A DNA stretch of 59,543 nucleotides from a virus, in the IMG/VR virus record IMGVR_UViG_3300003267_000070, positions 1 to 59,543 of that record; one strand, 5' to 3'. The notes under the pieces were generated by a model, which saw nothing but the letters and a program-made list of their open reading frames with translations, was not told the DNA's origin and searched no databases. Made by a program: the position numbers and the translations under genes. Positions 3,323 to 59,100 of the stretch are shown in pieces (position 1 is the stretch's first letter; every line of letters starts with the position of its first letter).

Positions 3323-3574
3323 TCACGTTATTGGCATGTACTCCGCGCACTTGTGAACAATCCCGTAATCGTCAACCAGCCGCCAGCCTCTCTCGGTCTT
3401 GCCCCAGTAGAACGGTCCACCCAAACAGCGATAACAACCAATTGGTACACATGACGACACTTCAACACGCTCACGAGACGGCGCTACGGCTGGTGCCGTT
3501 AAATGGTGTAAACAGTCGCAGTAAGCATGATCACCGCCGACCAGGGAGTTAATAACGCATCCAGTGTCACACAT
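3323..3574 (-). CDS. Cys-rich hypothetical protein
   Basis: 83 residues with nine Cys, including CDTGC, CDC and CYRC. ATG at 3574 overlaps the stop of the preceding gene (3567). Zinc binding is likely from spacing; no family recognised. Confidence 0.55.
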   Translation of the reverse strand: MCDTGCVINSLVGGDHAYCDCLHHLTAPAVAPSRERVEVSSCVPIGCYRCLGGPFYWGKTERGWRLVDDYGIVHKCAEYMPIT

Positions 3575-3782
3575 TGCCCCACCTTACATTTGCCGCGTGT
3601 CTCGCGATCTCGACCCGCCGCTTCTTACTAAGCTTCTTAGCTCGTGCGCGTCCTCCCGCCGCAGCTTCTTTCAGTAGCGCCTCAAGGCCATCAGCCACGG
3701 CGGTTAGCTCTTTGCGAAACCTTGGGTCGCTTTCAGTTCGCAGTTTGTTGATTTGCTCCAGTGTCTTCTTCCTGCTATTCAT
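3567..3782 (-). CDS. Small basic helical protein
   Basis: 71 residues from ATG 3782 (an earlier in-frame start at 3809 adds a poor N-terminus). It is helical and Lys/Arg/Ala-rich and ends in a KKRRVEIARHAANVRWG motif of the type often seen in small phage proteins that probably bind nucleic acid. Confidence 0.6.
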   Translation of the reverse strand: MNSRKKTLEQINKLRTESDPRFRKELTAVADGLEALLKEAAAGGRARAKKLSKKRRVEIARHAANVRWGNV

Positions 3783-3802
3783 ACTAAGCAAGCATAGCTT
3801 AG

Positions 3803-4012
3803 TTAGCAAGCATTGTCAACCACTAAACAACAACTAAAACACTTAATCCACCCGCCCTCGACGGTAGGCAGCCAGCCACTCTCGCACCGCATCGGACAGG
3901 GAAGCGGATTGAACAGCCGATGCTCCGGCGCTTCGTGCGGCATGGTGTCGGACCACGGGAAAGGTTCAGGATATGGGTCATGTACGGTCTCAGTCGTAAT
4001 GTTCATCGTCAC
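3803..4012 (-). CDS. Small zinc-motif protein
   Basis: 69 residues. CPMRC and CFSC form a CxxxC/CxxC pair around a Gly-Trp segment. Starts at 4012, or at the Met at 4006. Separated by 12 bases from the upstream gene. Function unknown. Confidence 0.55.
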   Translation of the reverse strand: MTMNITTETVHDPYPEPFPWSDTMPHEAPEHRLFNPLPCPMRCESGWLPTVEGGWIKCFSCCLVVDNAC

Positions 4013-12637: not shown

Positions 12638-12751
12638 CTAAGCGGCCTTCTTTTGCCGCCACTTACGCGAGAAGCAGGCAGGGCAACGATTCGGTAAGCG
12701 CTCGGTACGCCGAAACCACTCGTGGCTGCATTGCTTGCACTTGCATTTCAT
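12638..12751 (-). CDS. Mini zinc-ribbon protein (37 aa)
   Basis: ATG 12751 to TAG 12638-12640. Reads MKCKCKQCSHEWFRRTERL, then CPAC and a basic end. CxxC-HEWF-x-R then CPxC is a compact zinc ribbon found in many phages. A close relative is encoded at 26260-26376 as first gene of the second leftward operon. Likely nucleic-acid binding, unproven. Confidence 0.65.
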   Translation of the reverse strand: MKCKCKQCSHEWFRRTERLPNRCPACFSRKWRQKKAA

Positions 12752-12796
12752 GACAACGGACTCTAACACGGCTGCATGATGCTGTCAACAGGTATT

Positions 12797-21260: not shown

Positions 21261-21289
21261 TTGACTTGAAAATAAATAAGTCTTAGTAT
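21261..21289 (+). promoter_or_regulatory. Rightward promoter for HTH gene (leaderless)
   Basis: TTGACT at 21261-21266, a 17-base spacer and TAGTAT at 21284-21289. The HTH start codon follows 8 bases after the -10, so transcription should begin at or next to the ATG. No Shine-Dalgarno site is present. Confidence 0.65.
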
Positions 21290-21297
21290 TGCGGTCC

Positions 21298-21495
21298 ATG
21301 GATGACGTGGTAACTATCAAGTACGCAGCCAAGGCACTCGGTATCACGAAGGCGGCGCTCTACCTTGCCATTAAAGAGGATCGCGTTCAGTCTAAAACCG
21401 TACTCGATAAGATCACTATTCCTCGCTGGGAGTTTGACAGACTCAAACGAGAGCGAGCGAACAGAGCAAAATCCAACGGAAACGGTCACAAATAG
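21298..21495 (+). CDS. Helix-turn-helix DNA-binding protein
   Basis: 65 residues from ATG 21298. VVTIKYAAKALGITKAALYL is an excisionase/MerR-type winged helix start (helix, turn, recognition helix), followed by TIPRWEFDRLKR and a basic tail. A TTG nine bases upstream is possible but lies inside the -10 region. Divergent from the long early operon and next to an inverted repeat, it is a good candidate for the switch protein; it also precedes the helicase gene by 6 bases. Confidence 0.7.
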   Translation: MDDVVTIKYAAKALGITKAALYLAIKEDRVQSKTVLDKITIPRWEFDRLKRERANRAKSNGNGHK

Positions 21496-21501
21496 CAACC
21501 A

Positions 21502-22761
21502 ATGCCATCCCCCCATCTGGAGGTGAGGAATCGCTTCATCGCCAAGCGTAACGGGGATACCTGTTACGGCTTGGGGGAATGGCGTCGATACTCGGCGGGA
21601 GCATGGGAATCCATACCGGAGCTGAAAATCCGTCATGAGATTCAGTTACTTGCAGCGAAGATACCCAAACTCCAGGTGACAAATGGTGTTGTGACTTCCG
21701 TAACTGAACTGGTACGGCAGTGTTTAGGAGTGTCGGATCTGTTATTCGACGCTAATCCGAACGTTATCGTCTTCGCCGACTGCGTGTTGGACTTACAAAC
21801 GTGGACAACCGTACCGCATTCACCGCTTCATTACGCGACCTCCAAGCTAGCCTTCAAATACGATCCCGCCGCAAGGCTGGATGAGTGGAACAGGTTCTTA
21901 CTTACTCTCCCCTACGCTGACTTTATGCGCCGGTTTGCCGGTTACTGCATGACCTCGGAGACGCGGTTTGAAACAGCCCTGTGGCTCTGGGGGCCACCAG
22001 GGGGCGGTAAGTCAACGTACATCGAGGCGTTGTGCGCCATGCTGGGAGCGAAGGCGTGCGTATTGGGACTGAGCGAAATCGAGCGGTCGCAATTCGCTCT
22101 CGCGCAGCTTCCCGGACGCACCCTGGCAGTCTCAACCGAACTACCAGGCCGACTGGTGCGAGCGACGCATATCATCAACGCGGTAATTTCAGGTGAGCTA
22201 ATTCCCGTCGAGCGCAAGTATCTTGACCCTTACGTCATCCGACCGCACGCTAAGATCATCTGGGGCATGAACGTCCTGCCGTCAATCGGCATGGAGGGCA
22301 TCGGTATGTTCCGGCGCATCCTACCCATCCACTTCCCCGCCATTCCCGAATCGGACCGTGACCCGGCGCTCAAGGAGGCCATCTTACATTCCCCGATGGC
22401 GGTGGCGAATTGGGCGCTGGAGGGATTAAAAGAGATCCAGCAAACAGGGCTATTAGGTATTCCATCCGATCTTATCGAAGCCCGCGAAACCTACCGCCAG
22501 AACAATGATCTAACCCTCAATTTTATTAACGAATCCTGCGAGAGAGACGAAAACCGGCGTACCAAAAACAGTCACCTATACCACGAATACAAGACCTGGA
22601 CGGTGAAAAATGGCCATCGTGCCGTTTCTATCCAAAATTTCAAATCCGACATGGATCGTCTCGGTTTCCAGTCTGTTCGCACCCATAACATACTGTACTG
22701 GATAGGGTTAGCCCCCGTCGATGACTCCACTCTCGACTCCGAGATAATAGTTGAAGAATAA
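21502..22761 (+). CDS. D5/SF3-type replicative helicase-like ATPase
   Basis: 419 residues. A D5_N-type segment (about 60-160) precedes Walker A GPPGGGKST at about 164-172, a Walker B-like TLAVSTELPG, and the SF3 sensor IIWGMNVLPSI near 255. These enzymes, as in P4 and D5-family primases, unwind DNA at the origin. The primase half usually found at the N-terminus is absent, so host primase or another gene must supply it. No Shine-Dalgarno site before ATG 21502. A repeat-rich intergenic region follows. Confidence 0.8.
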   Translation: MPSPHLEVRNRFIAKRNGDTCYGLGEWRRYSAGAWESIPELKIRHEIQLLAAKIPKLQVTNGVVTSVTELVRQCLGVSDLLFDANPNVIVFADCVLDLQTWTTVPHSPLHYATSKLAFKYDPAARLDEWNRFLLTLPYADFMRRFAGYCMTSETRFETALWLWGPPGGGKSTYIEALCAMLGAKACVLGLSEIERSQFALAQLPGRTLAVSTELPGRLVRATHIINAVISGELIPVERKYLDPYVIRPHAKIIWGMNVLPSIGMEGIGMFRRILPIHFPAIPESDRDPALKEAILHSPMAVANWALEGLKEIQQTGLLGIPSDLIEARETYRQNNDLTLNFINESCERDENRRTKNSHLYHEYKTWTVKNGHRAVSIQNFKSDMDRLGFQSVRTHNILYWIGLAPVDDSTLDSEIIVEE

Positions 22762-26057: not shown

Positions 26058-26263
26058 CCTTCGCCCCTCACTCGCCGCTGCGCCGGCCACAGCTCGGTAG
26101 TCTTCCCCCGTGCCGCCAACCGCCCGTCACTATACGTCTCATAAGTCCTGGTGCTGAACTTCAACCCCGCGCGATCCAGTACCGCGCACAGGTCGTCATA
26201 CGCCGTCGCCGCATCTCTTGCACTAACCGTGATACTCACACCCTCAAAAATTACTTCGATCAT
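26054..26263 (-). CDS. Small alpha-beta protein
   Basis: 69 residues: IEVIFEGVSITVSARDAATAY (strand, strand, helix), LDRAGLKFSTRTYETY and a basic end. ATG 26263 overlaps the zinc-ribbon stop as ATGA. Not recognised. Confidence 0.6.
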   Translation of the reverse strand: MIEVIFEGVSITVSARDAATAYDDLCAVLDRAGLKFSTRTYETYSDGRLAARGKTTELWPAQRRVRGEG

Positions 26264-26376
26264 TTTCCCTCCTTCGGCTTGCGCCAGTCGTAACTCTTAC
26301 ACCTTGGACATTGCGCCGGTTCCACCGTTCGCTTGAACCACTCATGCCCGCAGCGTTTGCATTTCAGTTTATCCAT
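26260..26376 (-). CDS. Mini zinc-ribbon protein (38 aa), leaderless start
   Basis: ATG 26376 to TGA 26260-26262. MDKLKCKRCGHEWFKRT, then CPRCKSYDWRKPK: a compact zinc ribbon closely related to the 37-residue protein at 12638. First gene of the second leftward operon; its ATG lies 7 bases after a perfect TATAAT with no Shine-Dalgarno site. Confidence 0.7.
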   Translation of the reverse strand: MDKLKCKRCGHEWFKRTVEPAQCPRCKSYDWRKPKEGK

Positions 26377-26383
26377 GCCGAGT

Positions 26384-26411
26384 ATTATACATATGATAAT
26401 AAGTAATACAA
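26384..26411 (-). promoter_or_regulatory. Leftward promoter of second early operon (leaderless)
   Basis: Reading leftward: TTGTAT at 26411-26406, a 16-base spacer and TATAAT at 26389-26384, then 7 bases to the ATG at 26376. The -10 is consensus, the -35 weak, and the surroundings are AT-rich. Confidence 0.6.
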
Positions 26412-34465: not shown

Positions 34466-34494
34466 ACTATAACACCTCGCTGTTGACACGTCAA
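34466..34494 (-). promoter_or_regulatory. Leftward promoter of accessory island
   Basis: Reading leftward: TTGACG at 34494-34489, a 17-base spacer, TATAGT at 34471-34466. Just downstream is a CCCCC/GGGGG hairpin (34451-34465) at the expected 5' end of the RNA. The -35 overlaps the rightward promoter. Confidence 0.6.
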
Positions 34495-34511
34495 TCCTAT
34501 CGTGCTACATT
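34483..34511 (+). promoter_or_regulatory. Rightward promoter of accessory island (leaderless)
   Basis: TTGACA at 34483-34488, a 17-base spacer and TACATT at 34506-34511, then 8 bases to ATG 34520. The 12-bp palindrome TTGACACGTCAA (34483-34494) contains both opposing -35 hexamers, so one bound protein could block both promoters. Confidence 0.65.
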
Positions 34512-34519
34512 CTTGTCCT

Positions 34520-34687
34520 ATGAAGCCACGCGTCAAGGATACGCACATCTATTTTCCCGTCAAAGTGCTGGAGCAGTTAAAGAAACTGGCCGCGGTAAAC
34601 CGGCGCACGGTCAGCGCGGAGATTGTGATTGCGGTTGAGAAGCATGTTGAAACAGAGTCACCGAACGGAAAGCGGGTGAGGAAGTGA
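34520..34687 (+). CDS. Ribbon-helix-helix (Arc/CopG-like) protein
   Basis: 55 residues from ATG 34520. HIYFPVKVLEQLKKLAAVNR then TVSAEIVIAVEKHVE is the classic RHH layout: strand, helix, turn, helix. Such dimers repress by binding palindromes. It is the first gene right of the divergent promoters, so autoregulation at TTGACACGTCAA is a reasonable inference. Leaderless start. Confidence 0.75.
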   Translation: MKPRVKDTHIYFPVKVLEQLKKLAAVNRRTVSAEIVIAVEKHVETESPNGKRVRK

Positions 34688-35663: not shown

Positions 35664-35695
35664 GCGAAATCCCTTGCATCCCACTTCACCCGTCA

Positions 35696-35704
35696 TGTTA
35701 CACT
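35696..35704 (+). promoter_or_regulatory. Portal-operon promoter, TGTTACACT (leaderless GTG)
   Basis: TG-T-TACACT at 35696-35704 is followed 7 bases later by the portal GTG at 35712, with no Shine-Dalgarno site. A possible TTGCAT -35 lies 19 bases upstream. Confidence 0.6.
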
Positions 35705-35711
35705 CCCCCGC

Positions 35712-37325
35712 GTGGCCGACCCAGTCCTCCTATCTCGCATCACCTCCACCGAAAAGGCGGGTCAACTCCTGCTCAATCGCCGCCCATCAGCCTCCATCTC
35801 CGCTGACAGGTTCTACCACGGCGATCACTTTCAGAACTTTGAGGGCTGGATTGGGGAGCAGCCGCAGCCCGGTACTCCTGAGTATAACGAGGGACGCAGC
35901 AACATCGAGCGCGGCTTCGTTTCCGAGAACGTGATTAAGGAGGTAGTGGATCGGCATCGTTCCGGCTTACTGGGCCGTGAGCCGCTGTGGGGGTTTCTGC
36001 CGTCTGAAGTAACCTCACCTGCAACAGAGAGACGCCGCAAGTTGTTTAGCAAGCTATTCAAACTCGTCAACACAGTCAAGACTACGGTCCAAAGCGTCAC
36101 TCGCACAGGTCAGTTCAAGTTTGCCGACGAGGCCGACGACGCTCTGACCCTCTGGTGGAACAACCGTAATCCGCGTGAGGTGTTGAAGCAGGCGCTAACA
36201 AAAGTCCTGCTTGAGGATCGCGCAGTGCTCCACTTTCACTTCCCGCTGAACCTGCGAGATGTTAACGGTGAGATTGCCCCACAAGCCGACTTAACCTCTG
36301 CGGCCAATATCCCGCGTGTGCAGGTTCTTAGTTCAGACAAAGCGGGCGTGTTCATCGATGTAGACTCGTTGCAGGAGTTCGGCGTCTACTCCTATCAGCG
36401 AACGACAGACGACAAGCGGGTAGTTGAGTTGACATTTGTGCAGGATGGTTTAACTATCTTGCGTGTGTTAGTTGATGGGCAGGATCCACAGGACTTTACC
36501 TTTGAACTTGGCGGTCGTCTTCTCATGCACGAGCTTACCCGCCCCGCACTCATCACCCCACAGGTGATCTCGAACCAGAAGTCTCTCAACCTCGCCCTGA
36601 CTATGATGATGCGGAACGTGAATCTGGCTGGATCGCTGGAGCGGATCATTCTGAACGCTCAGCAGCCTACGCAAATTAAGCGCATTAAGGATTCCAGTGC
36701 GCCGGGTGGTTACCGCGAAGAGGAGGTTAAAGGAAACTTTTGGGTCGGGCCGGGGGCCACTACCGCGCTTAATGGTGTTCTAATCAAAGACAAAAATGGC
36801 GAGATCGTCGGTCGCGCCAACCCCAACATCTCCTACCGTGATCCCGTCAGTGTCGAAACCTTCACCGAAACCCGCGACCAGTTCTACGCCTCCATCCTGG
36901 GCCAGTGTCAGCAACGGCATGCGCTGATCTCGGGTGACGCTGTAGCTTCCGGTCGTAGCCGCAGCGAGGCCCGTGGTGAGTACCGTACCTCCCTTGCCGA
37001 CTCCAAAGACCCGGTTGATGACGCCGGCCGCTGGATACTGGAAACTGAACTACGTCTAGCGGCACAATTCTGCAACCGTACTGGTGACTTCCTTGCCCTT
37101 CGTGCAGACTTTAACTCCATCATTGAGGATGGACCAGTGACGGTTGAAGAGAGGGAGGCGAACCGGGCGGATGTGCAGGCTGGACTACTTAGTAAGGAAA
37201 CAGCTATGAGCCGTAACGGCGTGGAGGATACGCAGGCTGAACTTGAGCGGATTGCGCAGGAACCCAGGCCGGTGATTGATTTAACGAAGCAGGAGCAGGG
37301 GCAGGGAGGCAGACTGGCGGCATGA
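35712..37325 (+). CDS. Portal protein
   Basis: 537 residues, GTG start. Its size and its place after the terminase genes and before scaffold and capsid fit a portal. Seen: N-terminal helices with RFYHGDHFQNFEGW, a wing region, a long NLALTMMMRNVNLAGSLERI helix, a QCQQRHALISGDAVASG helix and an acidic C-terminus. The portal forms the dodecameric DNA entry ring. No motif is diagnostic, so the call rests on size, helix pattern and synteny. Confidence 0.8.
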   Translation: MADPVLLSRITSTEKAGQLLLNRRPSASISADRFYHGDHFQNFEGWIGEQPQPGTPEYNEGRSNIERGFVSENVIKEVVDRHRSGLLGREPLWGFLPSEVTSPATERRRKLFSKLFKLVNTVKTTVQSVTRTGQFKFADEADDALTLWWNNRNPREVLKQALTKVLLEDRAVLHFHFPLNLRDVNGEIAPQADLTSAANIPRVQVLSSDKAGVFIDVDSLQEFGVYSYQRTTDDKRVVELTFVQDGLTILRVLVDGQDPQDFTFELGGRLLMHELTRPALITPQVISNQKSLNLALTMMMRNVNLAGSLERIILNAQQPTQIKRIKDSSAPGGYREEEVKGNFWVGPGATTALNGVLIKDKNGEIVGRANPNISYRDPVSVETFTETRDQFYASILGQCQQRHALISGDAVASGRSRSEARGEYRTSLADSKDPVDDAGRWILETELRLAAQFCNRTGDFLALRADFNSIIEDGPVTVEEREANRADVQAGLLSKETAMSRNGVEDTQAELERIAQEPRPVIDLTKQEQGQGGRLAA

Positions 37326-49595: not shown

Positions 49596-49811
49596 TCAGT
49601 TCACGGTCGCCGTTGCATGGATAATTTCGTCTTCGTCTGCGTCTGTTCGGTTTCGGATGATCAGATCTTTAGAGCACGACGAACAAACGGAAGGCGATTC
49701 ACTAAATAAACGAAAATAGGCAAACCAACCACAGGCACAACGGGCAACTACAACCGCTAGGGGCTTGTCTTGTTCGTCGCACCAAAGTTCAAGATCGTCG
49801 GAATTAGCCAT
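49596..49811 (-). CDS. Zinc-ribbon protein on opposite strand (moron)
   Basis: 71 residues. ARCACGWFAYF and CSSCSKDLI form a zinc ribbon; both ends are acidic. It has its own leaderless promoter (TATAAT 6 bases before the ATG) and lies between two tail genes facing the other way, so it is an independently expressed addition. Confidence 0.65.
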   Translation of the reverse strand: MANSDDLELWCDEQDKPLAVVVARCACGWFAYFRLFSESPSVCSSCSKDLIIRNRTDADEDEIIHATATVN

Positions 49812-49817
49812 AACGCG

Positions 49818-49848
49818 ATTATAGATTAGATGCCTGAGTACGATCCAA
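49818..49848 (-). promoter_or_regulatory. Leaderless promoter of tail-region moron
   Basis: Reading leftward, TATAAT at 49823-49818 is 6 bases before ATG 49811. A possible TTGGAT -35 lies 19 bases upstream, within the next gene's start. Only the -10 is convincing. Confidence 0.5.
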
Positions 49849-58581: not shown

Positions 58582-59100
58582 ATGTCTGATTATCCTTACG
58601 ATTTATTCAACCTGATTGCCAATATCGCCACTGTCGCGGGCGTGGTAGTAGCACTCTATATCCTTGTAAGTAATCGCCGGATTACGATCAACGTTCGTCG
58701 TATTGCTGAACAGTTGGCCCAAGTCATCGCCCCGAAGACGGGGATTGAATCCTACCTGAACCTGTGCGCGCAGGTAGTGGACAGTGACCCGGACGGAACC
58801 TGCGTTGTCACCGACCAGGGGAAGATCGTGCTGGTCAACAGGAAGATGGAGGACATCTCCGGCTATCACCGCAGTGAGTTGATGGGCCAGCCGGTGGAGA
58901 TTCTCGTGCCGCTGGAATCGCGCAGGGCGCATACGACCGATCGAGAGAACTATATAGACCAGCCCTCCCTGCGACCAATGCGCGGGTTGCAACTGCGGCA
59001 CAAGCGTGGGCGCATTGTCCCCGTGGAGATCTGGCTGAATAACTTTAAGGATTCGTCGGGTGGGTTTACTATAGCCAAGGTTCGCGTACCGGAACGCTAG
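58582..59100 (+). CDS. Membrane-anchored PAS-domain protein
   Basis: 172 residues. Residues about 8-30 are one hydrophobic span (LIANIATVAGVVVALYILVS), followed by a basic segment and a PAS domain (about 60-165): DPDGTCVVTDQGKIVLVNRK, EDISGYHRSELMGQPVEIL, GRIVPVEIWLNNF. PAS domains bind small ligands or haem and sense redox, light or energy state. No kinase, cyclase or HTH is attached, so its output must go through a partner. Sits among envelope-type genes and may sense the host membrane state. Confidence 0.8.
   Translation: MSDYPYDLFNLIANIATVAGVVVALYILVSNRRITINVRRIAEQLAQVIAPKTGIESYLNLCAQVVDSDPDGTCVVTDQGKIVLVNRKMEDISGYHRSELMGQPVEILVPLESRRAHTTDRENYIDQPSLRPMRGLQLRHKRGRIVPVEIWLNNFKDSSGGFTIAKVRVPER

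What the first reader, a model, noticed from the sequence alone, without database searches (positions are those of the whole stretch)
21261..21300. Leaderless transcription start design shared by five genes
At five genes a good -10 hexamer ends 6-8 bases before the start codon and no Shine-Dalgarno site is present: HTH (TAGTAT, 8 bases, ATG 21298), zinc ribbon (TATAAT, 7, ATG 26376), RHH (TACATT, 8, ATG 34520), portal (TACACT, 7, GTG 35712) and moron (TATAAT, 6, ATG 49811). Transcription would start at or next to the start codon. All five head their transcription units, while genes inside operons rely on overlaps or Shine-Dalgarno sites. This would be a consistent leaderless layer of phage gene control.
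Basis: partly seen in the sequence, partly recalled or inferred. Interest (0 to 1): 0.75.

Follow-up and report, generated by a model that had tools for sequence, protein, structure and literature searches.

The report
Leaderless regulator genes in soil phages
In this uncultured bacterial virus and its relatives, many switch-type genes have their promoter placed so that the RNA should begin right at the start codon with no ribosome-binding leader, a design known from a few other phages that here is common and concentrated on small DNA-binding proteins.

Summary
All five sites are present as described: -10 hexamer, 6-8 bases, start codon, no Shine-Dalgarno (SD) motif. The window is an IMG/VR phage record with no close named relative. 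I fetched 16 related records and ran a scan that does not depend on start-codon calling. The share of promoter-like sites with a start codon 6-9 nt after the -10 rises from 2.7% (weak sites) to 38% (strongest). Lambda and HK97 show none. Of fifty such starts, 45 have a pyrimidine at -1, the initiator pattern expected if transcription starts on the start codon; one has an SD-like 4-mer. HTH, zinc-ribbon and RHH homologues keep the geometry although their upstream DNA has diverged to 31-47% identity. Portal is weaker; the moron is unsupported by relatives. Two further window genes share the layout: ATG 12751 (a zinc-ribbon paralogue) and ATG 3782. The leaderless set is rich in HTH/RHH regulators (17/49), against 0/47 for genes behind leadered promoters and 0/60 for other SD-led genes. 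Leaderless phage mRNAs are known (lambda cI, PY54 cI/cro, Thermus phage phiYS40), so this is a new member of a known kind. Host and actual 5' ends remain unknown.

The parts
21261..21289 (+). HTH promoter: -35 TTGACT (21261-21266), 17-nt spacer, -10 TAGTAT (21284-21289); 8 nt to ATG
   Evidence: same geometry next to the primase-helicase in L012 and L013, extended -10 TAACCT at 8 nt in L011
21298..21495 (+). HTH_17-like small DNA-binding protein (65 aa), predicted leaderless; followed by the D5/P4-type primase-helicase gene (21502-22761)
   Evidence: Pfam HTH_17 E=0.0018, below the curated cut-off
26384..26411 (-). Zinc-ribbon promoter: TTGTAT-16-TATAAT; 7 nt to ATG 26376
26260..26376 (-). Zinc-ribbon microprotein (38 aa), predicted leaderless
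   Evidence: translation; homologues in G004, G007 (two), G010, G011, all with a -10-like hexamer 7-8 nt before ATG
34483..34511 (+). RHH promoter: TTGACA-17-TACATT with TGn extended -10; 8 nt to ATG. The palindrome TTGACACGTCAA at the -35 is a possible operator
34520..34687 (+). Ribbon-helix-helix (Arc/CopG-like) protein (55 aa), predicted leaderless
   Evidence: Pfam RHH_5 and Arc; homologues G009:315 and G007:56366 leaderless with TTGACA-17 promoters
35674..35704 (+). Portal promoter: TTGCAT-19-TACACT, TGn extended -10; 7 nt to GTG
   Evidence: score 8.8; homologues CACACT-7-GTG, TAGTCT-7-GTG, TTGACG-18-TACTAT-10-ATG
35712..37325 (+).
   Evidence: no Pfam or PHROG match, so the name portal is not verified; relatives 39-69% identical
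49818..49848 (-). Moron promoter: TTGGAT-19-TATAAT; 6 nt to ATG; its -35 lies inside the gene starting at 49830
49596..49811 (-). Moron (71 aa), leaderless by its own sequence only
   Evidence: homologue in G014 aligns from residue 17-18; no good -10 at its own start
12760..12788 (-).
   Evidence: second-strongest promoter-like site of the window
12638..12751 (-). Second zinc-ribbon microprotein (37 aa), paralogue of the 26376 gene, predicted leaderless
   Evidence: 53% identity to the 26376 protein, E=1e-6
3791..3819 (-).
3567..3782 (-). Small orphan protein (71 aa), predicted leaderless
   Evidence: no homologue in the fetched relatives

Best explanation
These are leaderless transcription units. 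A host sigma-70-type RNA polymerase recognises -35/-10 elements placed so that the +1 base falls on, or within about two bases of, the first base of the start codon. The mRNA then begins 5'-AUG or 5'-GUG and is presumably loaded by ribosomes through the 5'-terminal start codon rather than an SD helix. In this phage group the arrangement is used mainly for small DNA-binding regulators (HTH_17/excisionase-like, Cro/CI-like, RHH/Arc-like), zinc-ribbon microproteins and a few module-heading genes, while most other genes use SD sites or translational coupling. Shown by sequence: promoter geometry, its conservation, the -1 pyrimidine, the lack of SD, the functional bias. Inferred: the actual 5' ends, translation by 5'-terminal start-codon recognition, and any regulatory benefit.
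For: Start-independent promoter scan with a sharp peak at 6-9 nt and a dose-response with promoter strength (51/282 against a 2.7% baseline, binomial p about 1e-26). The peak survives without gene masking (55/504; background about 8.5 per 4 offsets). It is absent in lambda and HK97 (0/48, p=0.0095) and in distant Bacteroidota-type contigs (12/398, p=5e-6). Pyrimidine at -1 in 45/50, against 175/374 for weak-site controls and 91/244 for SD-led genes (p about 2e-9 and 3e-12). SD-like 4-mer in 1/50, against 42% of 856 called genes and 7% of random positions. Geometry kept in homologues chosen by protein only, with 31-47% upstream DNA identity (by a strict definition 8 of 13 outside the window against 3.4%, p=2e-9). 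17 of 49 leaderless proteins carry HTH/RHH Pfam domains, against 0/47 behind leadered promoters and 0/60 SD-led (p=3e-6, 2e-7).
Against: No RNA data. Discriminators of 8-9 nt allow a 1-3 nt leader, which is nearly but not strictly leaderless. Portal and moron have poor -35 elements; the portal's closest relative has spacing 10 and ends in A, and the moron homologue shows no such promoter. The baseline predicts about 8 of the 51 peak cases are chance. The 50 genes fall in 37 protein families, so they are not fully independent. The 17/49 count was tallied by hand from partial listings and is approximate.
Confidence: 0.84

Rival explanations
1. The layout merely mirrors the host: the phage lineage infects bacteria in which many promoters are leaderless, so nothing phage-specific is being controlled.
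For: Leaderless genes are common in several phyla, e.g. about 19% in Actinobacteria, 39% in Deinococcus-Thermus, 13% in Acidobacteria (PMC3160421). GUG starts (9/50) fit hosts that accept leaderless GUG, such as Mycobacterium or Streptomyces (PMC9031893).
Against: It does not by itself explain why leaderless genes are regulators while equally promoter-headed leadered genes are not (17/49 against 0/47). No host could be assigned, so the host's own fraction is unmeasured.
Confidence: 0.5
2. Near-leaderless, SD-independent initiation: short leaders of 1-10 nt, with ribosomes landing on an unstructured start region rather than on a 5'-terminal start codon.
For: Spacings of 8-10 nt would leave 1-4 nt; the portal relative in L005 has 10.
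Against: Peak at 6-8 nt with few cases at 10 or more and 90% pyrimidine at -1 point to +1 at the start codon in most genes.
Confidence: 0.12
3. Chance or compositional coincidence: AT-rich intergenic DNA supplies TANNNT hexamers near ATG, and the real promoters lie upstream.
For: Any single TANNNT near a start is unremarkable: 3-7% of starts have one at 6-9 nt. This could hold for the moron and perhaps the portal.
Against: Dose-response, conservation, -1 pyrimidine and control phages exclude it for the class.
Confidence: 0.04

Closest known systems
Lambda cI from PRM and PY54 cI/cro (leaderless repressor mRNAs)
   Same: Small phage DNA-binding regulators translated from mRNAs that begin at the AUG; PY54 5' ends shown by RACE (PMC4488713).
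   Different: One or two genes per phage in enterobacterial hosts; here seven candidates in one genome and 50 across the group, including zinc-ribbon microproteins and a GUG-start virion gene.
Thermus phage phiYS40 middle/late leaderless mRNAs
   Same: A whole class of phage transcripts without leaders (PMC3594737).
   Different: In phiYS40 the class is temporal (middle/late) and host IF2/IF3 levels shift; here it tracks regulator identity and timing is unknown.
Bacterial leaderless genes with a TA-like signal about 10 bp upstream of the start codon
   Same: Same sequence signature, a Pribnow box about 10 bp before the start (PMC3160421).
   Different: Cellular genes; here a phage lineage with full TTGACA/TATAAT promoters and about 42% of called genes keeping SD-like motifs.

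Membership tests
Leaderless transcription unit | Promoter -10 element ending about 6-8 nt before the start codon | tested here: met
   51/282 promoter-like sites across 17 genomes
Leaderless transcription unit | No SD motif upstream of the start | tested here: met
   none at the five sites; 1/50 across the group
Leaderless transcription unit | Initiator context (pyrimidine -1, purine +1) at the start codon | tested here: met
   45/50 pyrimidine at -1; all five sites C or T
Leaderless transcription unit | mRNA 5' end at the start codon | not testable with these tools
   needs dRNA-seq or 5' RACE
Leaderless transcription unit | Spacing conserved in homologues | tested here: met
   HTH, zinc ribbon, RHH met; portal partly; moron not met
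Lambda cI/PY54-like autoregulated leaderless repressor | Encodes a DNA-binding regulator | tested here: met
   HTH and RHH by Pfam at weak E-values, below curated cut-offs
Lambda cI/PY54-like autoregulated leaderless repressor | Operator overlapping its own promoter | tested here: inconclusive
   RHH has TTGACACGTCAA over the -35, not conserved in its homologues by eye
phiYS40-type temporal leaderless class | Middle/late timing and shifted IF2/IF3 | not testable with these tools
   needs an infection time course

The most novel reading that the evidence does not exclude
In this phage lineage, leaderlessness is a selected functional class: switch-type regulators and zinc-ribbon microproteins are made from leaderless mRNAs while facing or neighbouring operons are leadered, so phage decisions would depend on the cell's capacity for leaderless initiation (initiator tRNA, IF2:IF3, 70S availability).
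Probability: 0.25. Interest if true: 0.62.

Novelty: new member of a known kind. Interest (0 to 1): 0.45.

Why it matters
A phage group in which regulators are leaderless and other genes are SD-led offers a clean test of whether leaderless translation is used to couple viral decisions to host physiology.

Tried and rejected
Host assignment: a TerL profile scan of 84,980 bacterial and archaeal genomes gave only 28-42% matches, mostly Bacteroidota MAG contigs; a Bacteroidota host is unlikely by general knowledge because that phylum lacks SD use and TTGACA/TATAAT promoters. Portal and tail proteins had no phage-collection match; the portal hit only a Scytonema plasmid at 27%. A first start-anchored test on called genes was weak because small genes were missed, so I replaced it by the start-independent promoter scan. 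The divergent -10 facing the RHH gene (34466, minus) also has an ATG 8 nt on, but that frame has 7 codons only and was not counted. Moron homologue: its start shows no matching promoter.

Full report
The window is a 59,543-base IMG/VR virus record, 54-55% G+C, with a TerL (Terminase_3), a D5/P4-type primase-helicase and long structural genes. It has no nucleotide or portal-protein match among 50,697 named phages. Sixteen related virus records were fetched in full or nearly so.

Check of the observation. All five promoters are present with the stated hexamers and spacings. Scored with an E. coli-like sigma-70 matrix (matrix values approximate, from general knowledge), they are HTH 11.7, zinc ribbon 12.0, RHH 15.1, portal 8.8 and moron 9.4. 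None has an SD-like 4-mer at -16..-4 and all have C or T at -1. RHH is the strongest promoter-like site in the window. The former opens a 37-residue paralogue of the 26376 zinc-ribbon protein.

Is it chance? A test on called starts was noisy because my simple gene caller misses small genes. I therefore scored promoter-like sites and asked how far downstream the first ATG/GTG with an open frame of at least 40 codons lies. Distances peak sharply at 6-9 nt. The share of sites in the peak is 2.7% for scores 2-4 and 4-6, 5.8% for 8-9.5, 8.8% for 9.5-11, 29% for 11-13 and 38% for 13 or more. Without masking genes the peak remains (55/504), while lambda plus HK97 give 0/48 and TerL-distant contigs 12/398, which is their background level. 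Thermus phage P23-45 and three actinophages yield too few matrix hits to judge.

Where does transcription start? Bacterial RNA polymerase prefers a pyrimidine at -1 and a purine at +1, about 7 nt after the -10 (general knowledge). Of 50 unique leaderless candidates, 45 have C or T immediately before the start codon, against 47% in weak-site controls and 37% in SD-led genes. This is independent of how the set was chosen and places +1 on the start codon.

Conservation. Homologues were chosen by protein or by gene neighbourhood. Beside the primase-helicase, L012 has TTGACT-17-TAGTAT-8-ATG and L013 TTGACA-17-TAGACT-7-ATG, while L011 has a weaker extended -10 at 8 nt. Zinc-ribbon homologues in G004, G007 (two), G010 and G011 have TTGAC-type -35 elements and -10-like hexamers 7-8 nt before ATG. 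RHH homologues have TTGACA-17-TAATAT-6-ATG and TTGACA-17-TATTCT-7-GTG. Portal homologues have CACACT-7-GTG, TAGTCT-7-GTG and TACTAT-10-ATG. Upstream identity to the window copy is only 31-47%, so geometry is retained while sequence drifts. By a strict hexamer rule, 8 of 13 non-window homologues comply against a 3.4% baseline (p=2e-9); none of the three portal homologues passes the strict rule.

Function of the class. Of 49 leaderless proteins about 17 match HTH or RHH Pfam families, and PHROG names are excisionase, transcriptional regulator or repressor and, in two, terminase small subunit. Genes behind equally scored promoters with an SD-led start 18 or more nt away gave 0/47, and other SD-led genes of roughly similar size 0/60 (Fisher p=3e-6 and 2e-7). 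In the window, the leaderless HTH and RHH promoters face divergent promoters (minus strand, 21225 and 34471) whose genes lie 54 and 72 nt downstream; the first of these has an AAGGAGG motif. The regulator side is leaderless and the operon side leadered.

Mechanism. The best reading is leaderless mRNA made by host sigma-70-type polymerase and translated from its 5'-terminal AUG/GUG. GUG starts (9/50) suggest a host that tolerates leaderless GUG, as reported for Mycobacterium and Streptomyces but poorly for E. coli (PMC9031893). Whether the class is a phage strategy or a host habit is open because no host could be assigned.

Comparison. The sequence signature is that described for bacterial leaderless genes (PMC3160421). 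Phage precedents are lambda cI, PY54 cI and cro (PMC4488713) and phiYS40 middle/late transcripts (PMC3594737). This is a new member of a known kind; the unusual points are breadth within one phage lineage and the bias to regulators and zinc-ribbon microproteins.

Noticed in passing
window 12638-12751 (-) and 26260-26376 (-): Two paralogous 37-38 aa zinc-ribbon microproteins, each leaderless, with homologues in four related phages (two copies in G007). A widespread unstudied small protein family.
   Followed up: partly
window 34466-34511: Back-to-back promoters share the palindrome TTGACACGTCAA, which forms both -35 elements: a possible RHH operator controlling both directions.
   Followed up: partly
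window 3567-3782 (-): Leaderless 71-aa orphan gene; an inverted repeat ACTAAGCAAGCATAGCTTAGT spans its -10 and discriminator region.
   Followed up: no
window 58582-59100 (+): Phage protein with a clear PAS domain (PF00989, E=1e-11), unusual near structural genes.
   Followed up: no
window 35712-37325 (+): Putative portal has no Pfam/PHROG match but resembles a hypothetical protein on a Scytonema plasmid (AP018265, 27%).
   Followed up: no
window 49818-49848 (-): The moron's -35 lies inside the first codons of the opposite-strand 1053-aa gene (ATG 49830).
   Followed up: partly
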